DNA from: Armatimonadota bacterium
GTDB taxonomy: Bacteria > Armatimonadota > HRBIN16
Direction of reading: 5' to 3'
Length of the DNA: 64,000 bases
Assembly: GCA_026003195.1 (NCBI GenBank)
Contig: BPGU01000004.1
Span: 134,317 to 198,316, forward strand
The notes under the pieces: generated by a model
Told to the model about the DNA's origin: nothing
What the model saw: only the letters and a program-made list of their open reading frames with translations
The model's database searches: none
Program-made: the position numbers and the translations under genes
Part shown: one piece after another, positions 11,087-23,026 of the stretch
How positions within the stretch are numbered: position 1 is the stretch's first letter
Layout of the letters: every line of letters begins with the position of its first letter

Positions 11087-11548
11087 CTACTCTCCTCCGG
11101 CGAGCTTCTCTATCAGCTTCGCCGGGGTAATAGCGGTGACCTCCTGGTATCGGCTGAAATCGTCGGGGTTGAGGGTGAGGATGTGGGGTATAGCGTATGC
11201 CAGAGCAAACGCTACCAGTCGTGCGTCATGTACCTCTTTGCCCTTCACCTCGTGGCGACGTACCACCTCCAGCCACCGCTGAGCGATGTCGGGAGGCTCC
11301 TCCAGGAGAGGTATGGCATCAAGGAACAGGTGGCAATCGGAGTAAGCCTGCTCTACGCTACGTCCCAAGCCGTTTGCTTCCAGAGGGCGAGTTGCCACGC
11401 TCCAAAACTCGATGAGCACTTGCGTGCAAAGGTACAGTTCGTGCTCACCATCGATGAGCAGTTCAATAGCACGCTCGCATTCTACAAGTTGAGGACTGTT
11501 CTTGTCGCGCAATCGGACAAGCACGTTAGTGTCCACCATCAGCCTCAT
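11087..11548 (-). CDS. PIN-domain toxin (VapC-like), copy 1
   Basis: 153 residues. PIN ribonuclease features: MRLMVDTNVLVRL (first Asp), QVLIEFW (Glu), VHDARLVAFALAY (Asp) and a terminal LTLNPDDFSRY (Asp). It should cleave RNA unless bound by its antitoxin, which is encoded 7 bp upstream (11556-11792). It is closely related to copy 2 at 11827; the shared C-terminal region includes a 64-bp identical DNA block. It is intact by eye. Confidence 0.9.
   Translation of the reverse strand: MRLMVDTNVLVRLRDKNSPQLVECERAIELLIDGEHELYLCTQVLIEFWSVATRPLEANGLGRSVEQAYSDCHLFLDAIPLLEEPPDIAQRWLEVVRRHEVKGKEVHDARLVAFALAYAIPHILTLNPDDFSRYQEVTAITPAKLIEKLAGGE
11124..11187. repeat. 64-bp block identical to 11858-11921 (duplicated toxin-antitoxin cassette)
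   Basis: Both blocks encode the same toxin C-terminal stretch (HILTLNPDDFSRYQEVTAIT) without a single nucleotide difference, while the rest of the toxins has diverged. The two antitoxin starts also share an almost identical segment (near 11745-11792 and 12470-12518). This indicates tandem duplication with recent gene conversion or selection on this part. Confidence 0.85.
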
Positions 11549-11555
11549 CGCGCGT

Positions 11556-11792
11556 TCAGTCCTCGTACAGATTCTCGCGTCGGAGGGCTTCCTCCGGGAT
11601 GTTGGCTCCCTCTACCGCGGTGGCTACCAGCTGCTTCAGCGCTCTGAGCCGTTGTTCGCGCGATGGTCTATCGTCAGTCTGCGCCCCTTGCTCGATGATT
11701 TGCAGGGTGACTTCTTGCCCCTCCTGCAATTCCAGAGGTTCCTCCGGGATCAGCACTTTGCCGTCATAACGAGCATGAATAAGCGTTTTCAT
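11556..11792 (-). CDS. AF2212/DUF104-like antitoxin, copy 1
   Basis: 78 residues starting MKTLIHARYDGKVLIPEEPLELQEG, the usual start of the DUF104-type antitoxin family that pairs with PIN toxins. The C-terminal tail (about 45-78) is charged and helical, fitting a toxin-binding arm. ATG 11792 is chosen because AGGAGG lies 8 nt upstream; the longer GTG start at 11801 would overlap that site. It is upstream of and co-oriented with PIN copy 1. Confidence 0.85.
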   Translation of the reverse strand: MKTLIHARYDGKVLIPEEPLELQEGQEVTLQIIEQGAQTDDRPSREQRLRALKQLVATAVEGANIPEEALRRENLYED

Positions 11793-11826
11793 CACGAACA
11801 CCTCCTGATACTCATTCTACCACTTT

Positions 11827-12282
11827 TCAACCGCTCAGCTGCTCCACCAACTGTGCTGGGGTAATAGCGGTGACCTCCTGGTATCGGCTGAAATCGTCGG
11901 GGTTGAGGGTGAGGATGTGGGAGATACCATGTGCTACGGAGAAAGCTACCAGCCGCGCGTCGTGCACCTCTTTGCCTTTCACCTCATAGTGGCGCACCAG
12001 CTCCAGCCAGCGATGCGCTATATCGGGAGGTTCGTCGAGTAAGGACATCACAAAGAGGTAATCCGCGCAGTCCTCGTCAGTCACCTGAATAGAGCGTCCC
12101 AATCCGTTTGCTTCTGCGGGGCGCGTGCTGACTGCCCAGTACTCGATAAGCACCTGGGCACATAGAGCCAGAGTGTAGTCTTGTTCTATCGCCAGGAGCA
12201 CAGCCTGCTCGCAAACCTGTCTGATTGGGCTGCTGTGGTCACTGAGGCGCACCAGAATACTGGTGTCTACAAGCAGGTTCAT
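11827..12282 (-). CDS. PIN-domain toxin (VapC-like), copy 2
   Basis: 151 residues with the same acidic residues as copy 1 (MNLLVDTSILVRL, QVLIEYW, VHDARLVAFSVAH, LTLNPDDFSRY). Its ATG overlaps the antitoxin stop in an ATGA (12279-12282), the tight coupling normal for such pairs. The paralogues share much of the C-terminal half but differ in the N-terminal half, where antitoxin contact and target specificity often lie. Confidence 0.9.
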   Translation of the reverse strand: MNLLVDTSILVRLSDHSSPIRQVCEQAVLLAIEQDYTLALCAQVLIEYWAVSTRPAEANGLGRSIQVTDEDCADYLFVMSLLDEPPDIAHRWLELVRHYEVKGKEVHDARLVAFSVAHGISHILTLNPDDFSRYQEVTAITPAQLVEQLSG

Positions 12283-12518
12283 ACTCTGTCCTCATAGATA
12301 TTCTCGCGACGCAGCGCTTCATCAGGAAGGTCTATGCCCTTTGCACCGCGCTCGACAATACGTCTTAGCACATCTTTCTTTTGCTCCTTTGACAACACCC
12401 CTGCCTGTAGCGGCAGTTCCAGCAGAAATACAGCCACCCTTTGTCCTTCTCGAAGTTCCAGAGGTTCCTCTGGGATCAGCACTTTGCCGTCATAACGAGC
12501 ATGGATGAGCGTTTTCAT
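12279..12518 (-). CDS. AF2212/DUF104-like antitoxin, copy 2
   Basis: 79 residues starting MKTLIHARYDGKVLIPEEPLELREG, almost the same N terminus as copy 1, with a diverged C-terminal half (SKEQKKDVLRRIVERGAKGI). The C-terminal divergence parallels that of the toxins, which suggests the two cassettes may now be insulated from each other. A GGAGG site (TGGAGGTGTTTCCG) precedes ATG 12518. Confidence 0.85.
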   Translation of the reverse strand: MKTLIHARYDGKVLIPEEPLELREGQRVAVFLLELPLQAGVLSKEQKKDVLRRIVERGAKGIDLPDEALRRENIYEDRV

Positions 12519-12568
12519 CGGAAACACCTCCATAGAGATTGTACCACTGCAGGTGCGTGAGGATACCG

Positions 12569-13945
12569 TTATCCGTTCCCGAAGAAAGCATAGTACTTTT
12601 CTCCCTGTGCAACACGCTGCACATACAGGCACGCTTCGCGCAGGTGGTAATCGCCCCACATGCTCGCCTCGCCGCAGGGGATGCGCCTGTCTTCGGGCAC
12701 ATGGTCCCAGCCGTTCGGGCGGTGGTACACACTGTGTAGTAACAACCCCTGGTGCGCTTCATCGGTGCTGAGGTAGGGTTCTTGCAACAGACGTTTCAGC
12801 ACGGTCAAGCCAGCTTGCCAGTAGTGTTCGCCTCCGCTTCCGTGTACGGACATCCAGTGTCCCAGCCTCAGCAGTCCCTGCGCGGCGATGGCGGCGGCAG
12901 AGCTGTCTACCGGTTCGTGGTCGTTGAAGGGGTCGGCGGGGCGGTTCAAGTAGTCGCCCAGCTCACGCAGGCGCGGTGCACCGGTATCCCAATAGGGAAC
13001 GCCATCGGTGGGTGTGTTCTCGATATAGAAATCGCAGGTTGCCAGCGCAGGCTGAAGCAGCAGATCCTGCACCGCTTTGCGACCGCCAAAGGGTTCCATC
13101 TCCGCATCACCCAGCGTCTCCACAAACTCCAGCTGTTCGGCAAAACCCAGCATCACCCATGCCAGCCCGCGCGTCCATGTGCTGAAGGGTGAGTAACCCT
13201 GCTGGGTGGAGGGGCAACGGTAACTGCCGTCCTTGGGGTTGAATAGGCTCTCGTGTGCTACTCGCCCGCGCACGTCGTAAATATCGCGCCCCTCGCCGTA
13301 GTACACGGTGTAGCGTGCGGTGGTGCGCGCGTGCAGAATCAGCCTTTCCAGTAGCGAAACCGGTCGGTCGCCTTCCTCCTTGAGCACATGTCCCAACCGG
13401 TGTGCTAAAGCGAGCACGCGCAGGGTACGCATGGTGTCGGCGAACAGTGAATGCGGTCCGTTAAAGGAGTAGATGTACCCGCCACCGTCGGCGGTACGTG
13501 TCCAGCGGGTTGCCTGCACCGCGCCGCTACAACGGATAGCGAGCTCGCACAGGCGAAGTTCATTCTCGTCGTGGGGGATCCTTCCCTCCCGCATCAGCCG
13601 CCACAGGTTGCCGTAGGTGCTGACCACGTTGAAGCCATGATCGTGCACGCCCGTGTGGGTGATGTGGATAGGGATATGACGGTATGTCCCCTCGCGCCCA
13701 ATGTGCAGGAACCGTTCCTCGCCGGTGGCATCAAACTGCAGCAAGGCGGAGCCGAACTGGAAGCCGTGTGTCCAGTCCGTCCAGGCGCGGCTGGTGTAGC
13801 GTCCCCGCACTGTAAACACCGGCGCACCTGCGTCCGGCGACCAGGTCTCCTCTATCGCCAGTATCTTCGCCGCTGACAGCTGCCACATCCGCTCGATAGC
13901 GGGCAACAGGTCAGAAGGGGTCAGGTTGTTATCGATATGGAGCAT
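12569..13945 (-). CDS. GH88-like unsaturated glucuronyl hydrolase
   Basis: 458 residues of an alpha/alpha-barrel enzyme of GH88 type, which removes the unsaturated uronic acid left by polysaccharide lyases. Typical elements are ARAWTDWTHGFQFGSALLQFDATGEERF-like barrel helices, HDHGFNVVSTYGNL, and the segment STWTRGLAWVMLGFAE. The later part has YWDTGAPR and DSSAAAIAAQGLL, as in the family. The catalytic Asp residues are probably in HDHGF and in the AWTDW or DSSAA segments. No signal peptide, so cytoplasmic. ATG 13945 was chosen from GGGAGGAA about 9 nt upstream. Confidence 0.85.
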   Translation of the reverse strand: MLHIDNNLTPSDLLPAIERMWQLSAAKILAIEETWSPDAGAPVFTVRGRYTSRAWTDWTHGFQFGSALLQFDATGEERFLHIGREGTYRHIPIHITHTGVHDHGFNVVSTYGNLWRLMREGRIPHDENELRLCELAIRCSGAVQATRWTRTADGGGYIYSFNGPHSLFADTMRTLRVLALAHRLGHVLKEEGDRPVSLLERLILHARTTARYTVYYGEGRDIYDVRGRVAHESLFNPKDGSYRCPSTQQGYSPFSTWTRGLAWVMLGFAEQLEFVETLGDAEMEPFGGRKAVQDLLLQPALATCDFYIENTPTDGVPYWDTGAPRLRELGDYLNRPADPFNDHEPVDSSAAAIAAQGLLRLGHWMSVHGSGGEHYWQAGLTVLKRLLQEPYLSTDEAHQGLLLHSVYHRPNGWDHVPEDRRIPCGEASMWGDYHLREACLYVQRVAQGEKYYAFFGNG

Positions 13946-13994: not shown

Positions 13995-14357
13995 CTACAG
14001 TATATCCCCTTTTTGCCAACGCGACAACATCGTTCTGCAAGGGTGTAACGCTGTTCTGCCAAGATAATCATAATCTACCGTTCGGGCGATGTTTCTACCA
14101 GTGGAGTTTTCACTGGTGCGGCGCCGAGTAACCTCTTGACGTATCTGCCAGGCACCAACGATGCCAGCAACCAGCAGGTACAAGCCCCCTGCCAGTAGCA
14201 GAATACCCGGCCAGCGAGGTTTGTACTTTGTCCGCCATGCTTTATCAGGCAGAAATGCAATGACAAAGCCCGCTACGCTAAAGCAGAAACCAATGAGGGC
14301 TGCAGCATAGTACATTCCCAAAGCACTCAGGGCATAGTCAGGATAGCCAGCAGACAT
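13995..14357 (-). CDS. Small integral membrane protein, candidate immunity to Rhs cassette A
   Basis: 120 residues with two clear transmembrane helices (about 12-34 and 48-69). It starts 16 bp after the stop of the orphan Rhs tail at 14374 and on the same strand, the position of an immunity gene. Because that tail looks like a cell-wall-type cysteine peptidase, a membrane-anchored antidote facing the periplasm would fit. The last about 45 residues are hydrophilic, and part of them (RQEVTRRRTSENSTGRNIAR) is encoded by a 64-bp dispersed repeat, so the native C terminus may have been replaced. The function is inferred from position only. Confidence 0.6.
   Translation of the reverse strand: MSAGYPDYALSALGMYYAAALIGFCFSVAGFVIAFLPDKAWRTKYKPRWPGILLLAGGLYLLVAGIVGAWQIRQEVTRRRTSENSTGRNIARTVDYDYLGRTALHPCRTMLSRWQKGDIL
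13999..14027 (-). promoter_or_regulatory. Promoter of the GH88 gene with nearby imperfect inverted repeat
   Basis: Minus strand TTGTCG (14027-14022), 17 bp, TATACT (14004-13999), giving a leader of about 47 nt. An imperfect inverted repeat (TTGCAGAACG ... CGTTGGCAA) spans the -35 region and could be an operator. The promoter lies inside the 3' end of the upstream small membrane gene. Confidence 0.6.
14078..14141. repeat. 64-bp dispersed repeat, copy 1
   Basis: Matches 19608-19671 with about 9 differences in 64; the first 27 bp are identical. On the minus strand both copies stay open in the same frame and encode TGRNIAR. One copy ends a putative immunity gene, the other precedes an antitoxin-like gene. 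It has no terminal inverted repeats of IS type. Confidence 0.7.
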
Positions 14358-14373: not shown

Positions 14374-14949
14374 TCACCACGTCCGGTATCCGCACTGCTC
14401 TAAAAGCCACTTCGCCACATCATAGCAGTTATTGCCAATTGCGCAATATAAAGGTACATCCTTCGGTGGGTTCTTGATATTTCGGCAAACACATTGCTCT
14501 TGTTCAGAAGTAAGCGGTAATTTGCGACACTGCTCCCCCGGACGGTGGGGAGGTGCGTCATCCCCAGTTTCCCAAGAACCTTCATCAATCCATGGCGTAG
14601 TACACCACTTGCCCGAGGGGCGAAAGCCAAGACACGTACGCCGTTCTGGTCCTCCGCGCTTGCTCTCGTCGCAACAGAGCCATGCGTGACTGCCAACGCC
14701 TGATTTCTGCTCGCCCTCGCACCAGTCCACCCGAAAACCCAAACGGTCAGTGCGCACCACCACCCCATTGCCCACATACGCATACAGATTCATCCCACCC
14801 TCTACTCCTATCGGGTCCCTGGTCAAAAACCTCCCCGTCGCGGGGTAAAGGTAGCGATGTGTCAGTAAGAGTATACCTGTTTCCACGTCCGTGGTGTAGC
14901 CCCATTGCGCTTTGTAGCCGTAGGGGGTGCGGGTGGAACCAGAAGCGTC
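14374..14949 (-). CDS. Orphan Rhs C-terminal cassette A with NlpC/P60-like (permuted papain) tail
   Basis: No start codon; a fragment of an Rhs/YD-repeat protein. The core end is clear: TPYGYKAQWGY, ILLLTHRYL, GRFLTRDPIGVEGGMNLYAYVGNG. After the boundary (RTDRLGF) the tail is unique: SHAWLCC, CLGFRPSGKW, LTSEQEQCVC and PLYCAIGNNCYDVAKWLLEQCG. An early HAW, then GF.P, a conserved helix and a late NNC.D is the layout of permuted NlpC/P60-type cysteine peptidases found as Rhs tails, with His in HAW and Cys in NNC as likely catalytic residues. The frame begins directly after the TGA of the RelE-like toxin gene. Immunity candidate: the membrane protein at 13995. Confidence 0.8.
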   Translation of the reverse strand, partial: DASGSTRTPYGYKAQWGYTTDVETGILLLTHRYLYPATGRFLTRDPIGVEGGMNLYAYVGNGVVVRTDRLGFRVDWCEGEQKSGVGSHAWLCCDESKRGGPERRTCLGFRPSGKWCTTPWIDEGSWETGDDAPPHRPGEQCRKLPLTSEQEQCVCRNIKNPPKDVPLYCAIGNNCYDVAKWLLEQCGYRTW

Positions 14950-15231
14950 TCAGTAAACCTCATCATGCGACCCTAGCGTCAACAACAATATCTCCTCACC
15001 ACCATCCTCTGCAGTAACAAACTCGAACAACAGTCTTACGTCCCTCTCTACCCAGCAAGCCCACACCCCTTCCAGTTCGCCGCGCAGCTTATGCGTACGC
15101 AGTTGCGGCTGGAACGGATCAACACTCAGCTGCTCCAGCACGCCTTTCAGCTTTTCCAGCAGCTGCGGATGCCGGCGCGAGAACCGTTGATACGCCCGCA
15201 CGAAGGTGTTTGTCCAGACCAGCCTTCTCAT
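14950..15231 (-). CDS. RelE/YafQ-family mRNA interferase toxin
   Basis: 93 residues: MRRLVWTNTFVRAYQRFSRR start, LEGVWACWVERDVRLLFEF core and a LLTLGSHDEVY end, typical of RelE/ParE-fold (YafQ-like) toxins that cut ribosome-bound mRNA. The C-terminal SHDEVY carries the His-x3-Tyr type residues common in YafQ-like enzymes. Its ATG overlaps the antitoxin stop (ATGA at 15228-15231). The pair sits inside the Rhs cassette array, between the immunity gene of cassette B and the core fragment of cassette A. Confidence 0.9.
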   Translation of the reverse strand: MRRLVWTNTFVRAYQRFSRRHPQLLEKLKGVLEQLSVDPFQPQLRTHKLRGELEGVWACWVERDVRLLFEFVTAEDGGEEILLLTLGSHDEVY

Positions 15232-15455
15232 TCACCCAGATCGCGCAACAGGTCGTCCACACTACCCCGACGCGCCTCATCCCTCTGGTAAGCGGAGCGA
15301 GCTTTCTCTACCTCTTCTACCAGTTGCTGTCGGCGCAGGCGGCGCAAACGGTTGCTAATGATTTCCACCACCATCCACTGCTCTTCCTCGGAAAGCGCTT
15401 CCACCGCATCCAGAACCTGCTGCACCCCCTGCGGGAGACCAGTTTCCAGAGCCAT
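15228..15455 (-). CDS. Antitoxin partner of the RelE/YafQ-like toxin
   Basis: 75 residues, mostly helical and charged (DAVEALSEEEQWMVVEIISNRLRRLRRQQLVEEVEKA). The end, RRGSVDDLLRDLGE, resembles addiction-module antitoxins whose C terminus wraps the toxin. Directly coupled to the toxin by ATGA. No clear ribbon-helix-helix motif was seen. A GAGGAGGAACC ribosome site lies just before ATG 15455. Confidence 0.82.
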   Translation of the reverse strand: MALETGLPQGVQQVLDAVEALSEEEQWMVVEIISNRLRRLRRQQLVEEVEKARSAYQRDEARRGSVDDLLRDLGE

Positions 15456-15556: not shown

Positions 15557-16354
15557 TCATACGCGATCATCCGCCCCGAAGTAGTCCTCAACGGCTTTCC
15601 AGCACGCTTGGCAAACTGCTACGCTCTGACACCGCTGCGTCACCTCTCGCAGCATGTGCTTGGCAGCCTCTCCGCGAATATGAAACCCTATCGTTTCGCA
15701 GATTTTCCACAGAGCCATATCGTCTACGTCTTGGGTCAAGCATAACCGGTCCACATACAGCAGCACCCTTTTCAAAGCGTCCAAGAGTTCTCGTTTTCGC
15801 ACCTCATCCATGCGGTCAATCACCCAGTTGTCCAGAACGAACAGCACGTTCCATGCTGTGCCGTGACGCCACGGTGTTTCCTGGAGGAGTAGCGAAATCA
15901 AGTCACGCCAGGCAACATACTCCGCCCAGTCCACAATGGTCAGCCAGATATCCTCTTGCGGATGCAGGATGTTTTGCAGAAACAGCCGTCGCTTGTCGGC
16001 TGCGGTGTAGCAGTAGGCATTCTCTGCTGCTTTGAACCCAGCCTCGCGCACCTTGATATGATGATGACACAGGCGGCGGCGAACGAAACGTCTTAGCGTA
16101 TACCACACCTGCCGATGGATCCGGTTAGGTGCTTTCTTGTGCCAACCGTACACTTCCCAAAGGAGCAGGGGTGTGATAAAGGTCACATCTGGGTCGTAAT
16201 CGCTACGCACGCACTCCAGCACAAGAGCACAAGCCTCGGCAGGGGACAACGATCCCAGTCGCTCTCTAAGACGCCTGAGGCTCTGGTCCCTACTGCCGCG
16301 TGCCCAACGCCTGAGCCAGTATCGCATGTAACAACAGTAGTGCCGTGCCGTCAT
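15557..16354 (-). CDS. Candidate immunity protein of Rhs cassette B (helical-repeat type)
   Basis: 265 residues, predicted all helical, with HEAT-like spacing (RLRERLGSLSPAEACALVLE; VREAGFKAAENAYCY; LDALKRVLLYVDRLC; GEAAKHMLREV). ATG 16354 overlaps the cassette B stop as ATGA (16351-16354), so it is translationally coupled to the toxin tail, the strongest immunity signal in the array. An upstream in-frame ATG at 16453 lies within the toxin tail and is not preferred. It resembles in style the helical C-terminal half of cassette D. No family could be named. Confidence 0.65.
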   Translation of the reverse strand: MTARHYCCYMRYWLRRWARGSRDQSLRRLRERLGSLSPAEACALVLECVRSDYDPDVTFITPLLLWEVYGWHKKAPNRIHRQVWYTLRRFVRRRLCHHHIKVREAGFKAAENAYCYTAADKRRLFLQNILHPQEDIWLTIVDWAEYVAWRDLISLLLQETPWRHGTAWNVLFVLDNWVIDRMDEVRKRELLDALKRVLLYVDRLCLTQDVDDMALWKICETIGFHIRGEAAKHMLREVTQRCQSVAVCQACWKAVEDYFGADDRV

Positions 16355-16923
16355 ATAGGTACGAGGACGGGCGGTCTTATCGGAACAGGAGTGGGTATAC
16401 GAGGCGGCCAGGGATAGGGCAGAGGAACGCATGGATAAAGACCTCCAGGCCATTCGGGAATGGGGGCGTTGAGAACCCCTTCGAAATACTTGATTTCGTT
16501 ATGAAAGTAGTTTTTCCAATGATTGTTGCAGTTATTGTCAATTTGGTTCAGCACCTCTCCCAGCCTCCGTTTCAACCCTTCTACATCTTTAACGTGCCCC
16601 CGATAATTTTCCCACTTCTCCAACAATGTGTGGTCTGGCCTTCGGGGAGCAGCAGCACACGGTTCGCTGGGAATGCATAAACTAGCCACAGGAGGGAGGT
16701 TATCTCGTATCTTTTGCAGATGTTCCTCGATCTTTCTCGCCAACTCACGTGCTTTAGCAACAGCCTCAAAGCACTTCTCTTTATTATGTAGCCCCTGTGG
16801 GTCGGCTGTAGTCATCACCCCATTGCCCTCATAAGCATATAGGTTCACGCCTCCCTTACACCCCGCCGGGTCCCTCGTCAAAAACCTCCCCATCGCGGGG
16901 TCAAGGTAGCGATGGGTTAGCAG
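16351..16923 (-). CDS. Orphan Rhs C-terminal cassette B, 5' truncated
   Basis: The shortest core remnant: LLTHRYLDPAMGRFLTRDPAGCKGGVNLYAYEGNGVMTTADPQGL, with an in-frame stop 9-12 nt upstream and no convincing start except ATG 16893. The tail (about 145 residues) is helical (KCFEAVAKARELARKIEEHLQKI), then DNNCNNHWKNYFHNEIKYFEGVL, and ends in a proline-rich PPRIPTPVPIRPPVLVPI. No known toxin family was recognised; the CNNHW...FHNEI cluster is a possible active site. Immunity candidate: 15557-16354, overlapping by 4 bp. Confidence 0.72.
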   Translation of the reverse strand: MLTHRYLDPAMGRFLTRDPAGCKGGVNLYAYEGNGVMTTADPQGLHNKEKCFEAVAKARELARKIEEHLQKIRDNLPPVASLCIPSEPCAAAPRRPDHTLLEKWENYRGHVKDVEGLKRRLGEVLNQIDNNCNNHWKNYFHNEIKYFEGVLNAPIPEWPGGLYPCVPLPYPWPPRIPTPVPIRPPVLVPI

Positions 16924-16993: not shown

Positions 16994-17908
16994 TTATGAA
17001 GAACGCCACACACGCTGCCATTGATCTATTATTTGCAACACCTGTGGAGTTGGTTCGACAACCCCAACACATTCGTAGCCCGTTTCCAGCACCTTTCCCA
17101 TAAATCTTCCAGAATAGTCATACGCTAACACCACCGTACCAAAGTGGAATGGTTTATGGCATAGAACCCAGTATTCGCGCGCTGCAGGTCTTGCGTAAAT
17201 CCTTCTGCAGAGATACCACCTCGGCAAGCGTGCAAAGCGGGTAGAACCTGCCCGACAAATCTGTACACCGTGTTGCGTTAAGACGACGAGGAAGTCGTTG
17301 TGAGCATCATAGTCCCAGTCGACGATGTCGAAATTAGCGTCGTACATGCGTATCCCTGATGGTAGTAGAACCTTGACACGGGCATACTCATCGAGCAAAG
17401 CGAGAGCATTACCCCCTGCTGATACCCGGACCTCCAGCACTTTAGGCACAGGAACCACTTGTCCTGAATGGGGAAGCACCTTGAGCACGCCAATATAGCG
17501 TCGGATGAAAGTACGAGAGTAGAGGTTCAGCCACAGTTCTCCCCCGCGAGCGGCGATCCTTACTTGTTCTACTTGTGGTGATAGGTACTTCCCCACTTCT
17601 ATCCAGCGAATGGACCCGTCTTTACGCGCTACTGCTATGGATCTGTCCGTATCCGACCAGTAAACCAGATTGCCCTGCCATTCTACAAACTCGGGATAGA
17701 GCACTGCTTGCCCATTCTTACCACGCGGACTACCCAGATAAGTGACTTTCCTACCGTGGGTGGTGATGTACAACCCGCGATAATCAACAAGGATCATCGA
17801 GCGAGGGGAGGTGCGTGAGGGGGCGCAGTAGGGTAGAAAGAGAGCTGAGCAGATGAGCACAGTGCCCACTGCAACACCTGCTAGCAAACCTGTCAAACGC
17901 TTATTCAA
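16994..17908 (-). CDS. Membrane-anchored or exported protein of unknown function (WD/propeller-like strands)
   Basis: 304 residues: a basic start with a hydrophobic segment (about 7-27, GLLAGVAVGTVLICSALFLP) that may be a signal peptide or anchor. It is followed by a strand-rich body with repeated patterns (LVDYRGLYITTHG, VYWSDTDRSIAVARKDGSIRWIEVG, LLPSGIRMYDANFDIVDWDYD) that could form a beta propeller. TTG 17908 is chosen from GGAG 9 nt upstream. It lies directly upstream of cassette B, so it may be the immunity gene of a cassette now lost, or an unrelated passenger. Confidence 0.55.
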   Translation of the reverse strand: MNKRLTGLLAGVAVGTVLICSALFLPYCAPSRTSPRSMILVDYRGLYITTHGRKVTYLGSPRGKNGQAVLYPEFVEWQGNLVYWSDTDRSIAVARKDGSIRWIEVGKYLSPQVEQVRIAARGGELWLNLYSRTFIRRYIGVLKVLPHSGQVVPVPKVLEVRVSAGGNALALLDEYARVKVLLPSGIRMYDANFDIVDWDYDAHNDFLVVLTQHGVQICRAGSTRFARLPRWYLCRRIYARPAAREYWVLCHKPFHFGTVVLAYDYSGRFMGKVLETGYECVGVVEPTPQVLQIIDQWQRVWRSS

Positions 17909-18285
17909 TCGTCACATCTCCATAGAGAGGTTACTTGGCCGGGAAGGGTGTGCTTAGCGTTCCCTGGGGTAGACCTAATCCAGCCTGTCCGGGACCAGGA
18001 AGGCGGGGAACTTTACGACGCGCACACTCCCAAACATCCCAGACCCATCAGTGGCAAGCACTCCATGGGAATTGATAGACTCTGTTCTTGCCAACGCTAG
18101 CCTTCATGCATTCACATAATGCCACCTCGAATTCTCTACGGCTGTCTTGCTCCATCACGTATCGGCAGTGAGCCCTATCTGGCGCCTCCCAATGTCCCAC
18201 ATGCGGTTTGAATGGGTTACGCTCCTCCGTACACTGTGGATGAACGCGCAGCTGATTCTGGCAAGGAGTATTTGGGTAAAATCCT
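17909..18285. other. Gene-free stretch with a possible gene remnant
   Basis: 377 bp between the exported protein and the dead IS. On the minus strand an open stretch without a start codon ends at 17978 or so and reads ...INSHGVLATDGSGMFGSV and then FPAFLVPDRLD, which has the look of a real protein C terminus but is unassigned. No promoter or RNA structure was recognised. Confidence 0.35.
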
Positions 18286-19324
18286 TAGGAGTTACGCAGT
18301 TGACGTCAACTCCTTTTTCTGAGTATCAGACTACCACAACCATGCCAATCCTGTCAACAGGAGTGAACCAGTGTGAACCCACCCAAACCTGATGACACGG
18401 ACTACATCCACTTCCTCATCGCCAGCCAAAGGGTGTTCACCTGCACCCAAGCCGCCCGATGCCAACCCGAGACACAGGGCACAGCCGCGCACGATGCCTT
18501 CACCCGCCTGCTGGCACCGATACCGAGGCGTTGTGGCAGCCAGCACAGCAGTGGATACACAAGCAGAAGGGGATACGACGACACCCTCTTAGACCAGCCC
18601 TATGCGCCGCAGATGGAGTGGGTCTGTGACCACTGGAGTGGCAAACACCGTCGCGTGGTCCAAGGCATTTGCCTGTTGACGTTGCTGTGGACACAAGGGG
18701 AAGCGCTCGTTCCCTGTGACTATCGGGTGTATACCAAGAGAGAGACGAAGAACGAGTGATTTCGGGCGATGCTTGGGGTAGCGCACGCTCGCGGTTTCAC
18801 ACCCAAGTATGAGTTGGTATTCTGGGGTAGAGAACCTGAAGGCGATACGCGCTTTGGGCTGGCACTTTGTGACGAGGCTCAAGAGCAACCCCGACGGGAA
18901 AGGGGACGTGCCTCTGGGCACGGTAGAGATCGGTGCGCAGGGTCGGATAGTTCCTCTGAAGGCGTTCGGTTTCGTCAAAGTATTTCGGACAGTTTCCTGC
19001 AACGGAGAGGTGGCATACTGGGCGACGGACGACTGAGAGATGACGGAGGCACAGCGTGCGCAGTGGGAACAGATGGGTTGGGGTATAGAGGAATACCATC
19101 GTGCTGTGAAGCAGTGTTGCGGGGTGGAGCGCGCGCAGGTTCGGCAGGCGGTGTGTTGGTTGGGGCACTTGCAGTGTGCGTTGCGTGCCTTTTTGCGGTT
19201 GGAGTCGTATCGTTTGCGCAGCGGGGTGAGTTGGTATGAGGCGAAGCAGCGCATCATTCGGGATGCGATACATGCATATTGGAGGCATCCCCTCTCTGTC
19301 GTGCAGCCAACTGCGTAACTCCTA
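18286..19324 (+). mobile_element. Degenerate IS701-like element with intact 17-bp inverted repeats
   Basis: TAGGAGTTACGCAGTTG (18286-18302) is perfectly inverted at 19308-19324, giving a 1,039-bp element. The transposase inside is broken in several frames, yet the ends are perfect. No flanking target duplication could be found, which suggests older age or later rearrangement. It separates the 17-kb and 20-kb parts of the Rhs array. Confidence 0.85.
18373..19318 (+). pseudogene. Broken IS701-family-like DDE transposase
   Basis: GTG 18373 begins MNPPKPDDTDYIHFLIASQ, the normal start of this transposase family. The first part ends with DDTLLDQPYA, HWSGKHRRVVQGICLLTLLWT and PCDYRV, containing the first catalytic Asp region. 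Later pieces occur in other frames: NLKAIRALGWHFVTRLKSNPDG (from about 18827), then WGIEEYHRAVKQCCGVE with the likely catalytic Glu (from about 19077). At least two frameshifts and internal stops (18757-18759, 19034-19036) make it non-functional. Confidence 0.85.
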
Positions 19325-19607: not shown

Positions 19608-19671
19608 CCGTTCGGGCGATGTTTCTACCAGTGGCGCCTTCAACGGTGCGTCGCCAAGCAATCTCTTGACG
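19608..19671. repeat. 64-bp dispersed repeat, copy 2
   Basis: Second copy of the repeat at 14078-14141, 27 bp upstream of the antitoxin-like gene's start codon. Both copies have the same orientation. Confidence 0.7.
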
Positions 19672-19780
19672 CGGCACCCAAACATCCATGAGGCTCACGA
19701 TGAATGAGTAAAATCCATCTGTCAGTAACAGCGGGCATAGCTAGCGGGGCTGGCGCCCACCATGCGTGCTCACTGTTCAT

Positions 19781-21112
19781 CTACCTTTTGCATTGCGCAA
19801 TCGCCTTAAGTAGCAAAGTATCGAATATTGTCCAGATATGTCCTTCCAGTTTGTGGATACTTTGCAGTAAGGCTAAGGGATGGAGAGGAGAAGTGGCGAA
19901 TTGTTGTAGCCAGCGTGCGACGTCTGTAGCGGGGTGAAGCATCTTTGTTTCTATAGGGAGAGTTGTCATCGCGTCATCGCCCAGTGTCCACAGAGGATTC
20001 TTGGCCAAGAGTGTAGATATCTCCCCATCTATAGCATTCACAAGCGACCGATCGATAGGGACCACCGTCGTGTCAAGAGGGAGCAGAACACTCTCAGTAT
20101 ACCACTCCCAAAAGGAAGGCAACTGTATGACAAGCCTCACCATGAACTGCGTTTCGCTTTCAAGTGTAGCCACGTGAGTTTGCTCCACCCCCATCAAGGA
20201 AAAGAGCAATTGTGTCAATTTGTAGGTTCTTGATAGACGTTCTGCAAGACGGATCGAGTTTATCTGGTCCAAACCTGACATGCGACATGCTTCGGCAGAA
20301 GCAAACGCATAAGATAATCGCGCCATGACTTTGGGAGCGTCCTTGTCCGCAAAGTGTCCAACCATTCTGGGGAACGATACCGTGGTACCGCTGAGTTGCC
20401 TCTGCCACTTATGAGTTAGCGCATCCGCTACAGCACTGTATACCTCGTGATATCCATACGCTACATGGTAGAACTCCTCAAGTAGATAAAGGCTGTGGTA
20501 AGGGCTTGTGTTCCATCTATCAAGAGTAGTAAAGAGCTTCTCCAAACTATCCTTGAGACGCATGAGCGAAGGCGCCATGTTTACAATGGTCTCTGTATTC
20601 TGAATGGTTGGAGCCTTTGCATACCACCATGCATACGTATCGCGAAGGTACTCATCCAATCGCCTTTCGAAGGATTCTGCCAATACGGGGTCCAGGCTTA
20701 CATGCTTGGGTTTACCATCTTGGCACCGAGCAAGCAACATGGATAACAACCAGCAAAAATGGGCCCAAACTACATCGCTGCCATAGATGGGGTGCGCGTA
20801 CCCCCAGCAGTCAATGCCCCCGTGATTAGTAGGCTGGGCGTGAGGCTGTCCTAAAGCAAGTAGGTCCGTATACTCAATCATTGCATCGTGAAACAAAGCC
20901 TCCGCAATCAATGAAGCACATGCTAGCTGTACCGCATCTGGAGGCTCACCCGTGCGTTCAAAGGCGGATTCCTCCGCTTCATCTGGCACGTGCAAGACCA
21001 TGCAGGCGATATCGTTTGCTTTTTCGGGTGCAAGCAACCATCTCGTCAGGTAGAGTAGCCTCCCCATAAAATGCGCAGGCTGTAAGTCAATCATGGGTAA
21101 TCGCCGTGGCAT
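19781..21112 (-). CDS. Candidate immunity protein of Rhs cassette C (large, helical)
   Basis: 443 residues, no signal peptide, mainly helical with many Trp, Tyr and His (HFCWLLSMLLARC, YLLEEFYHVAYGYHEVYSAVADAL, SYAFASAEACRMSGLDQIN). It starts 14 bp after the stop of cassette C and faces the same way, the normal place for an immunity gene, although it is large for one. It was not recognised as any named family. An alternative is that it is an unrelated accessory gene captured with the cassette. Confidence 0.55.
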   Translation of the reverse strand: MPRRLPMIDLQPAHFMGRLLYLTRWLLAPEKANDIACMVLHVPDEAEESAFERTGEPPDAVQLACASLIAEALFHDAMIEYTDLLALGQPHAQPTNHGGIDCWGYAHPIYGSDVVWAHFCWLLSMLLARCQDGKPKHVSLDPVLAESFERRLDEYLRDTYAWWYAKAPTIQNTETIVNMAPSLMRLKDSLEKLFTTLDRWNTSPYHSLYLLEEFYHVAYGYHEVYSAVADALTHKWQRQLSGTTVSFPRMVGHFADKDAPKVMARLSYAFASAEACRMSGLDQINSIRLAERLSRTYKLTQLLFSLMGVEQTHVATLESETQFMVRLVIQLPSFWEWYTESVLLPLDTTVVPIDRSLVNAIDGEISTLLAKNPLWTLGDDAMTTLPIETKMLHPATDVARWLQQFATSPLHPLALLQSIHKLEGHIWTIFDTLLLKAIAQCKR

Positions 21113-21126
21113 TCCTGGTCGGTCTC

Positions 21127-21756
21127 CTACTTCATGTAAGGTATCAGATCAGGCGAAGGTCGTAGACCCCGAAGCAGCTCAGGAACGCACTTCACCGCTT
21201 GCTGCCCCAGCCTATAGCAAATCACCCCCGCACGTACGATACCAAGTGCCAAACATGCTTCGATGGTACAGTCCTTTAGCCCGGGATCATGAATAAACTC
21301 AGGCACATCCCATCTACGCGGACTACCATAATCCACGCAGAACTTGTACGCCTTTAACCATTCACCCAGCAATTTGTCATAGTTCGGATGCTTATAGCAA
21401 TACTTTCTGAAGCGGGCTATCTCATCTGCCATCGTTTCGCACTCTTGTTTTGCTTTCTTTGTATGGCCCTTGTCTAAGCATCGATGTTTTTCATAATAGT
21501 CTTTAAGCTCTCCGACCTTCTTTGCCCCTTCTGCAAGAGACCTTACCAATTTGTCGCGATCGACCACATGAAAGCCAATCGGGTGCACGCTCATTACCAC
21601 CCCGTTGCCCACATACGCATACAGATTGATTCCACCCTCCAGCCCTATCGGGTCCCTCGTCAGAAACCTCCCCGCCGCGGGGTCCAGGTAACGGTGTGTC
21701 AGTAAGAGTATACCACTTTCCACGTCAGTGTACTCGCCTCTATTCCTGCTCCTCAT
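21127..21756 (-). CDS. Orphan Rhs C-terminal cassette C
   Basis: The core remnant begins at YTDVESGILLLTHRYL and runs through GRFLTRDPIGLEGGINLYAYVGNG. ATG 21756 lies inside the end of the preceding gene and could drive a 209-residue product. The tail (from about VHPIGF, some 155 residues) is Cys- and Lys-rich: KHRCLDKGHTKKAKQECETMADEIARFRKYC, then DYGSPRRWDVPEF and a hydrophobic stretch CLALGIVRAGVICY. The C.DKGH...C pattern is reminiscent of Rhs tails that carry spaced Cys/His helices, but no activity can be assigned. Confidence 0.72.
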   Translation of the reverse strand: MRSRNRGEYTDVESGILLLTHRYLDPAAGRFLTRDPIGLEGGINLYAYVGNGVVMSVHPIGFHVVDRDKLVRSLAEGAKKVGELKDYYEKHRCLDKGHTKKAKQECETMADEIARFRKYCYKHPNYDKLLGEWLKAYKFCVDYGSPRRWDVPEFIHDPGLKDCTIEACLALGIVRAGVICYRLGQQAVKCVPELLRGLRPSPDLIPYMK

Positions 21757-22333
21757 CCTTTCCTACCATCTCGACAAACCGCTTGTGAATGTACAACATG
21801 CTATCCTCTTTTGGGGTAGTGGTAGCCCATGTCATTGCTTGCTCGTATGCCTCGCGCAGCTGGGGATGCCTTTGCCAATCCACGAAGTGCTTTGCTGCCT
21901 GCGGATGTTCCAGGACGTGTTCGAGCACCGAGTTGACGACGAAATCTCTCAGTTCATGTCTCTCAAACAGACGAACCATTAACCGCTTCAGGTCCTCTAT
22001 TGCATAATAGGGGAGAGAAGGGTTATCTAGAAGATACCAGAAGTAGGTCACTAAACGATAGCCTGCCTCCCATCTCTCCAGCACGTACTTGTGGTTGTGC
22101 ACATCTCTCCAGATGCATTGCTCGATATAGCGCACCAAGAACTCATGGTACTCCTCGAACTGCAGAGGAGGACGTATTCGGTCTGTAAAACGCCTATCCC
22201 CAAGCAACTGCTCTACAAGTGCCATGACCTCGATGTCTTGGCTGCGCATCCAGGAAAGCACCAGTTGGCGCGGAAGCGTGCTACTTCCCCGAGACTCTTC
22301 CAGAATTTTCTTAAGCAGATTATTATGCTGCAT
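21740..22333 (-). CDS. Candidate immunity domain of Rhs cassette D, internal start
   Basis: 197 residues from ATG 22333, in the same frame as the upstream Rhs tail with no stop between. GAGG lies 8 nt before this ATG, so separate translation is plausible. The sequence is helical and HEAT-like (RQLVLSWMRSQDIEVMALVEQLL; IEDLKRLMVRLFERHELRDFV; EHPQAAKHFVDWQRHPQL), similar in style to the cassette B immunity candidate. It may exist both as a free antidote and as the C terminus of a toxin-antidote fusion. Confidence 0.5.
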   Translation of the reverse strand: MQHNNLLKKILEESRGSSTLPRQLVLSWMRSQDIEVMALVEQLLGDRRFTDRIRPPLQFEEYHEFLVRYIEQCIWRDVHNHKYVLERWEAGYRLVTYFWYLLDNPSLPYYAIEDLKRLMVRLFERHELRDFVVNSVLEHVLEHPQAAKHFVDWQRHPQLREAYEQAMTWATTTPKEDSMLYIHKRFVEMVGKDEEQE

Positions 22334-23026
22334 TGCAGTTGCCTCAATGTTGTAGTTGGCGTTTAATTGGCAGTCTGGATAGTACTTCTCCCAATCAACA
22401 GGCATGTCAGGATGGCAACTTGCCCGAGTCTGCGCCTTCTTGGGCGGCTGACATTTCTTTGCCCAAAGGCTCAGACATCTCAGTAGGGCTTTTTCCAAAT
22501 CCTCTATCTCTTTACTGTGCTGGCCGCCTCGCGGCAGTGGGACGTGCTCGTCCCACCCTTTTTGAGAACGTAGCATCCTGAGCAGATTCCAGATCTTACC
22601 CCGTATTAGACGGCACTCGTCGCTAGGTCTGCAACCTACCTTTACCTTTTCCGGAGGGTGCCAAGGTCCCCCTCGACGGGGCAGTTCGCCTTCCGGGTCA
22701 TAGTAATCGACTACCCCATTGCCCACATACGCATACAGATTGATTCCACCCTCCAGCCCTATCGGGTCCCTCGTCAAAAACCTCCCCGTCGCGGGGTCCA
22801 GGTAACGGTGCGTCAGTAACAGTATACCACTTTCCACGTCCGTGTAGTAGCCCCATTGCGCTTTGTAGCCGTAGGGGGTGGGGTTGGAGCCGGACATCAA
22901 TTGACCCCACGCATCATACGCAAAGTTCGCCAGCACCGTGCGACCGTCGTCGTCCAGCAAATGCGCCACGTTGCCCTGCGGGTCAAAGAGGATATGGGTC
23001 TTCGGGTGGGTGGGGTGATGATGGTA
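21740..23026 (-). CDS. Orphan Rhs C-terminal cassette D, toxin tail fused in frame to immunity-like domain
   Basis: The longest core remnant: from THILFDPQGNVAHLLDDDG and FAYDAWGQLMSGSNPTPYGY to GRFLTRDPIGLEGGINLYAYVGNG. The boundary motif is YYDPEG. The tail then has a Cys/His helical domain of about 110 residues (GCRPSDECRLIRGKIWNLLRM; HVPLPRGGQHSKEIEDLEKAL; LWAKKC), somewhat like Rhs tails with a GH..Q helix and paired Cys. The frame runs without a stop into a helical immunity-like domain. No ATG exists at the 5' end: the frame opens immediately after the murJ TGA, in the murJ frame; GTG 22969 is the first usable start. Confidence 0.72.
   Translation of the reverse strand, partial: YHHHPTHPKTHILFDPQGNVAHLLDDDGRTVLANFAYDAWGQLMSGSNPTPYGYKAQWGYYTDVESGILLLTHRYLDPATGRFLTRDPIGLEGGINLYAYVGNGVVDYYDPEGELPRRGGPWHPPEKVKVGCRPSDECRLIRGKIWNLLRMLRSQKGWDEHVPLPRGGQHSKEIEDLEKALLRCLSLWAKKCQPPKKAQTRASCHPDMPVDWEKYYPDCQLNANYNIEATAMQHNNLLKKILEESRGSSTLPRQLVLSWMRSQDIEVMALVEQLLGDRRFTDRIRPPLQFEEYHEFLVRYIEQCIWRDVHNHKYVLERWEAGYRLVTYFWYLLDNPSLPYYAIEDLKRLMVRLFERHELRDFVVNSVLEHVLEHPQAAKHFVDWQRHPQLREAYEQAMTWATTTPKEDSMLYIHKRFVEMVGKDEEQE
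22717..22845 (-). repeat. Rhs core-end repeat shared by four cassettes
   Basis: The DNA that encodes LLLTHRYLDPATGRFLTRDP and the segment to YVGNG recurs at about 21603-21730, 16820-16923 and 14763-14895. The D and C copies differ at only a handful of positions over more than 120 bp; A and B are more diverged. Such shared core ends are the recombination substrate by which Rhs genes exchange tails. Confidence 0.85.

What the first reader, a model, noticed from the sequence alone, without database searches (positions are those of the whole stretch)
14374..14949. Cassette A tail looks like a cell-wall cysteine peptidase and is paired with a membrane antidote
The order HAW, GFxPxG, LTSEQ, NNCYD fits permuted NlpC/P60-type domains. 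A periplasm-acting toxin needs an immunity protein in the membrane or periplasm, and the neighbouring gene has two transmembrane helices. The logic of the pair is coherent without any database hit.
Basis: partly seen in the sequence, partly recalled or inferred. Interest (0 to 1): 0.62.

Follow-up and report, generated by a model that had tools for sequence, protein, structure and literature searches.

The report
RHS toxin tip with membrane antidote
A bacterium of the little-studied phylum Armatimonadota carries a spare toxin tip, probably a cysteine enzyme that attacks the cell envelope of rivals, beside a gene for a two-helix membrane protein that very likely protects the owner; sister species have lost the toxin and kept the antidote.

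Summary
Window 14377-14733 (minus strand) is the 119-residue tip of a headless RHS fragment, and the gene 16 bp downstream (13995-14357) encodes a protein with two membrane helices. The tip belongs to a family without a Pfam or NCBIfam model, found as RHS tips across the phylum: His in 31 of 32 members, Cys in 32, Tyr exactly seven residues before the Cys in 28. That is the layout of permuted papain-like (NlpC/P60, LRAT, PPPDE) enzymes. A confident model of a relative (pLDDT 79) has the expected strand and helix order; Foldseek found no match, Pfam PPPDE matches are sub-threshold, and the window tail itself modelled poorly. The antidote reading is strong: in two sister species the toxin was deleted at different junctions while the membrane gene stayed open under purifying selection. 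I would change "cell-wall peptidase" to "permuted papain-like hydrolase, more likely lipid-acting", by precedent of Tox-Act1/Imm-Act1. Cautions: the closest orthologue has Arg in place of the His, and the window copy is a headless orphan that may be expressed only after recombining onto a full-length RHS gene. A second, broken copy of the same toxin family lies at 18009-18296.

The parts
14377..14733 (-). 119-aa toxin tip (stop codon 14374-14376); putative His16 at 14686-14688, Tyr96 at 14446-14448, Cys103 at 14425-14427
14734..14949 (-). remnant of the RHS-associated core (72 aa); start of the gene missing, directly after the stop of a YafQ-like toxin gene
   Evidence: (TIGR03696 E 1.9e-14), (89% DNA identity over 185 bp to the core at 22710-22894)
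13995..14357 (-). 120-aa protein with two membrane helices, the likely cognate immunity protein; AGGAGGAG just before its ATG
   Evidence: sequence; homologue beside the G003 orthologue
18009..18296 (-). second, broken member of the same toxin family: the half with the His is missing and two stops lie inside
   Evidence: (E 3.3e-10, 1 TGA and 1 TAA)
16994..17908 (-). intact-looking 304-aa gene with an N-terminal membrane anchor behind the broken copy; relative of the gene behind L053, likely its immunity gene
19624..19752 (-). degenerate remnant of a second copy of the two-helix immunity gene (residues 46-88, one TAG)
   Evidence: E 8.3e-4
21740..22969 (-). first RHS tip of the array, unrelated tail; upstream RHS head missing
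21127..21756 (-). second RHS tip, unrelated tail, followed by a 443-aa gene without predicted membrane helix (19781-21112)
16351..16893 (-). third RHS tip, unrelated tail, overlapped by a 265-298-aa gene without predicted membrane helix (15557-16453)

Best explanation
Window 14949-13995 (minus) is an orphan RHS toxin/immunity cassette. The tip is a small, cysteine-rich, permuted papain-like hydrolase: His16 on the second strand, Tyr96 before and Cys103 at the start of the last helix. When joined by recombination through the conserved RHS core DNA to one of the genome's full-length, signal-peptide-bearing RHS genes, it would be carried out of the cell and act outside the cytoplasm of a neighbour, most likely on membrane lipids or lipoproteins, with peptidoglycan second. 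The downstream two-helix membrane protein neutralises it at the inner membrane and could be made alone from its own ribosome site. Shown here: RHS tip, family, conserved residues, pair, selection, toxin loss with antidote retention. Inferred: fold, catalysis, substrate, export route, neutralisation.
For: RHS core before the tip and 51 RHS core matches in the genome, in arrays. Family of RHS tips: His 31/32, Tyr at Cys-7 28/32, Cys 32/32; PPPDE1 has the same Tyr-Cys spacing of 7 (Tyr101, Cys108; PMC3142127). AF2 of a relative, pLDDT 79 / pTM 0.76: five strands, then two helices, His16 opening strand 2 and Cys95 near the start of the last helix, the permuted order. Sub-threshold Pfam matches of three relatives' Cys segment to PPPDE (E 0.0033 and 0.013) and RTE1 (E 0.031), which PMC10318531 puts in cluster II, the NlpC/P60-like group with the permuted families. 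The tail matches (hhalign 94%, E 1.4e-7) the tip of a full-length 1295-aa RHS protein with a Sec-type signal in the same genome. Purifying selection on the tail (pS 0.84, pN 0.20). Immunity: homologous neighbour in G003; in G009 and G001 the toxin is deleted with different junctions and the membrane gene is intact (81% and 75% identity, dN/dS 0.20-0.42). Genes behind other members carry a membrane anchor (8 of 8 distinct family tails against 6 of 12 other tails). Parallel: Tox-Act1, permuted NlpC/P60, periplasmic, phospholipase, two-helix Imm-Act1 (PMC12994826).
Against: Foldseek of the good model against PDB gives nothing (best probability 0.14); profile comparison with YiiX/YaeF is not significant; the window tail itself models at pLDDT 46.5. 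The nearest orthologue has Arg in place of His16. The two subfamilies are not linked directly; the window tail bridges them. The window copy has no head and no evident start signal, so it may be silent. Substrate is by precedent only.
Confidence: 0.55

Rival explanations
1. Same toxin/antidote pair, but the enzyme is a true peptidoglycan peptidase or amidase.
For: Canonical NlpC/P60 enzymes cut peptidoglycan; anchored immunity genes only say that the target lies outside the cytoplasm.
Against: His-before-Cys order is the permuted layout, whose characterised members act mostly on lipids, acyl groups or, for PPPDE, isopeptides (PMC3142127, PMC12994826, PMC10318531). The two-helix membrane antidote resembles Imm-Act1.
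Confidence: 0.16
2. The tail is a disulfide-stabilised, cysteine-rich domain that is not a cysteine hydrolase (binding, pore-forming or other toxin); the His and Cys are structural.
For: 5-14 Cys per domain, all 11 conserved in the orthologue pair; H16R in G003; no PDB fold match.
Against: His 31/32 and the fixed Tyr-x6-Cys in sequences otherwise about 20-30% identical; strand/helix order of the model; C97 and RTE1 sub-threshold matches fall on the Cys segment.
Confidence: 0.17
3. The cassette is a dead relic with no present function; the neighbour is an unrelated membrane gene.
For: No RHS head, directly abuts a YafQ-like gene; a second family copy in the window is broken; the immunity gene's last 32 residues differ from its relatives.
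Against: Tail pS 0.84 against pN 0.20; neighbour conserved with the tail in G003 and retained under constraint where the tail is lost. Orphan CT/immunity modules in other bacteria are functional although they lack start signals (PMC3150448).
Confidence: 0.1
4. The C-terminal segment is an ankyrin-like repeat.
For: Weak Pfam Ank_3 match, E 0.011, 16.6 bits.
Against: Below the cut-off of 22.3 bits; a single repeat; of the 22 aligned family members only the window tail and its orthologue show it, while the Cys/Tyr pattern is general.
Confidence: 0.02

Closest known systems
Orphan Rhs-CT/RhsI (and CdiA-CT/CdiI) modules (PMC3150448, PMC3967940)
   Same: RHS core remnant followed by a variable toxin tip and its immunity gene, arranged in arrays, tip lacking start signals
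   Different: The full-length RHS proteins examined in this genome have a Sec-type signal peptide and the genome gives no TssC (VipB) match; the tips belong to an unnamed family; the toxin-deleted, antidote-kept state is seen beside the RHS core in sister species
Tox-Act1/Imm-Act1 of Salmonella and the TseH clade (PMC12994826)
   Same: His-before-Cys permuted NlpC/P60-like toxin with a two-helix membrane immunity protein; target outside the cytoplasm
   Different: Sequence relation not tested (those effectors were not fetched); here the toxin is an RHS tip, cysteine-rich and about 115 aa
PPPDE (Pfam PF05903, MEROPS C97)
   Same: Tyr exactly seven residues before the Cys; Y-x5-NC-type segment; sub-threshold Pfam match of two relatives
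   Different: Below the gathering score; the match covers only the Cys segment; characterised members are eukaryotic isopeptidases
YiiX/YaeF (Pfam PF05708, C92)
   Same: Order strand-His-strand, LT-x-EQ-type helix, Tyr, Cys
   Different: No significant profile match; Tyr-Cys spacing 13 in YiiX; the conserved acidic third residue was not recognised here

Membership tests
RHS orphan toxin/immunity module | RHS-associated core joined to a variable C-terminal tip | tested here: met
   51 core matches in the genome
RHS orphan toxin/immunity module | cognate immunity gene directly downstream, conserved with the tip | tested here: met
RHS orphan toxin/immunity module | toxicity and specific neutralisation | not testable with these tools
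   needs expression
permuted papain-like (NlpC/P60, LRAT, PPPDE) | conserved His before conserved Cys | tested here: met
   family His 31/32, Cys 32/32; the exception is the nearest orthologue
permuted papain-like (NlpC/P60, LRAT, PPPDE) | fourth catalytic residue, Tyr before the Cys | tested here: met
   Tyr at Cys-7 in 28/32, as in PPPDE1
permuted papain-like (NlpC/P60, LRAT, PPPDE) | beta-sheet first, helix carrying the Cys near its N-terminus last | tested here: met
   model of relative L078, pLDDT 79; window tail model too poor to test
permuted papain-like (NlpC/P60, LRAT, PPPDE) | significant fold or profile match to a member | tested here: not met
   only sub-threshold Pfam matches
permuted papain-like (NlpC/P60, LRAT, PPPDE) | His and Cys within hydrogen-bonding distance | not tested
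   the structure results listed secondary structure and confidence; no call returned a distance between the two residues
T6SS-delivered Rhs effector | T6SS sheath genes in the genome | tested here: not met
   no VipB/TssC at E 0.01; full-length RHS carries a Sec-type signal

The most novel reading that the evidence does not exclude
A so far unnamed, cysteine-rich family of permuted papain-like, lipid-acting toxins, carried as interchangeable tips of Sec-exported RHS proteins in Armatimonadota without a T6SS, in which sister species shed the toxin by deletion and keep the membrane antidote.
Probability: 0.4. Interest if true: 0.62.

Novelty: new variant of a known kind. Interest (0 to 1): 0.5.

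Why it matters
RHS tips are usually linked to cytoplasm-acting toxins (PMC12994826), and no paper in the library joins Armatimonadetes, Rhs and toxin. If true, the case gives a testable permuted papain-like toxin outside Salmonella and Vibrio, with a two-helix antidote of the Imm-Act1 kind, and natural deletions that show, species by species, a toxin lost and its antidote kept, which bears on the question of why orphan immunity genes persist.

Tried and rejected
Searches of phage and plasmid records with the window tail gave nothing credible, and plasmid searches with four relatives (L081, L078, L092 and L058 tails) gave no match. IMG/VR with the tail gave no relative; the diverse alignment A2 had no stretch conserved enough to scan with. 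PDB sequence profiles gave nothing for A1 and only chance matches for A3 and A14. Foldseek of the good model against PDB and viral libraries gave no match; I did not run it on the poor window model. Pfam C92 and Lnb_N (DUF4105) were sought in 121 genomes of the phylum: none. PADLOC: none. Ankyrin match rejected as sub-threshold. For folding the window tail, several alignments were misregistered (a split-fragment attempt also failed). I compared subsets and trims of the four relatives by script and used a set that keeps His, GF and Cys in register, chosen for register before a window model was seen; the model was still poor. The family model was made from relative L078, not from the window tail, because its alignment was cleaner.

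Full report
What is there. The minus-strand frame 14949-14374 is open. The frame begins right after the stop of a YafQ-like toxin gene (14950-15231; PF15738 E 1e-10), so the RHS head is missing. The next gene, 13995-14357, starts 16 bp after the tail's stop behind AGGAGGAG and encodes 120 residues with two membrane helices.

Setting. The genome (4.58 Mb) holds 51 matches to the RHS core, in arrays. Two arrays examined start with a full-length 1295-aa RHS gene with an N-terminal hydrophobic signal (MRRFTLALVVTALAFLTASVGWSK...) and 13-14 RHS repeats. No TssC/VipB match was found. The window array has four RHS tips with a core but no head; their cores share 77-94% DNA identity over 104-185 bp, enough in principle for recombination (inference).

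The family. The tail's only close relative in 291 genomes of the phylum is in G003 (71% identity). A motif scan of RHS tips and a profile search then found matches in 21 genomes at E <= 0.01, the weakest of which are doubtful; 25 tails from these were aligned. Over the 32 tails tabulated, some of them near-identical copies: His 31, Cys 32, Tyr at Cys-7 28. The window tail and its orthologue match the C2 tip with hhalign probability 94% and the larger subfamily with E 0.0015 but probability 17%; the two subfamilies without the window tail do not match each other, so their common origin rests on the bridge. No Pfam or NCBIfam model covers the family.

Which enzyme. In permuted NlpC/P60-type enzymes the His precedes the Cys and a Tyr lies before the Cys; in PPPDE1 these are His38, Tyr101 and Cys108 (PMC3142127), the same Tyr-Cys spacing as here. 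The AF2 model of relative L078 (4 sequences, pLDDT 79, pTM 0.76) gives strands 2-6, 16-20, 31-35, 48-50, 60-64 and helices 68-82, 94-110, with His16 opening strand 2 and Cys95 as second residue of the last helix: the permuted order. Two relatives match Pfam PPPDE on the Cys segment below the gathering score (E 0.013; E 0.0033), one matches RTE1 (E 0.031); PMC10318531 places C97 among circularly permuted cluster II and lists the RTE1 relative TMEM222 in cluster II. Against this: no Foldseek match, no significant profile match to YiiX/YaeF.

Active or not. The window-G003 pair differs at 0.84 of synonymous and 0.20 of non-synonymous sites, which indicates strong constraint although the synonymous sites are saturated. 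Yet G003 reads SRVW for SHAW. Either the G003 allele is recently dead or the His is dispensable there; I cannot tell which.

The antidote. G003 carries a homologue beside its tail (37% over 68 residues, E 7e-17). G009 and G001 carry closer homologues (81%, 75%) and no credible tail. There the membrane gene follows an RHS core directly; aligned DNA shows the tail missing with different junctions in the two, and pairwise comparison of the membrane genes gives dN/dS 0.20-0.42. A gene kept after its toxin partner is lost is what an immunity gene predicts. Genes behind other members of the family bear membrane anchors: 8 of 8 distinct family tails against 6 of 12 other RHS tips by a simple hydropathy rule, one of the six being a subfamily II relative; farther relatives mostly agree.

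Substrate. The permuted branch is linked to lipids: YiiX/BcPPNE and LRAT (PMC3142127, PMC10318531), and Tox-Act1, a periplasm-acting phospholipase whose immunity protein has two membrane helices (PMC12994826). This precedent moves me from cell wall to lipid or lipoprotein, as an inference. I did not fetch TseH or Tox-Act1 for comparison.

A second copy. Window 18009-18296 is a broken family member (two stops, His half absent), followed by an intact 304-aa anchored gene (16994-17908) that resembles the gene behind L053. A remnant of the two-helix gene lies at 19624-19752. The window thus shows a trend like that of the sister species, toxins decaying and antidotes staying, though one of its antidote copies has decayed too.

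Analysis choices that bear on the numbers. The 32-tail table uses hand-set motifs to locate the Cys and His in each tail, so it reports conservation in alignments I had already seen, not a blind test. Membrane-helix calls rest on one Kyte-Doolittle cut-off (19 residues, 1.6), and the split of tails into family and other used a motif rule. The alignment used for the window fold was picked from several by register of His, GF and Cys.

Noticed in passing
18009-18296 and 16994-17908: Broken second member of the toxin family followed by an intact anchored gene, a likely orphan immunity gene.
   Followed up: partly
G000: C1, C2, C3, C4, C12; L092, L093: 51 RHS core matches in arrays; two arrays begin with 1295-aa RHS genes with a Sec-type signal, each preceded by a 353-aa gene with a hydrophobic start, TPR-like in L092.
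   Followed up: partly
G000:C1:2826-7319 and C9:17519-22012: Several RHS matches on C1 and C9 have equal scores and equal spacing, possibly a duplicated stretch in the assembly.
   Followed up: no
14950-15455 and 11087-12659: Type II toxin-antitoxin genes interleaved with the RHS cassettes: YafQ-like toxin with a small upstream gene, and PIN-type genes (11827-12282 matched) with AF2212-like partners (11556-11801 matched).
   Followed up: partly
14078-14141 and 19608-19671: 64-bp stretch repeated at 86% identity; it covers the end of the immunity gene and the remnant of another copy, and the window gene's last 32 residues differ from its relatives.
   Followed up: partly
18373-19318 (+): Fragmentary frames that recur near another RHS array (L093 7523-8005); perhaps a mobile-element remnant that interrupts the broken toxin copy. 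No Pfam match.
   Followed up: partly
19781-21112 and 15557-16453: Genes of 443 aa and 265-298 aa without membrane helix behind the other RHS tips, no Pfam match; likely immunity genes of other toxin types.
   Followed up: no
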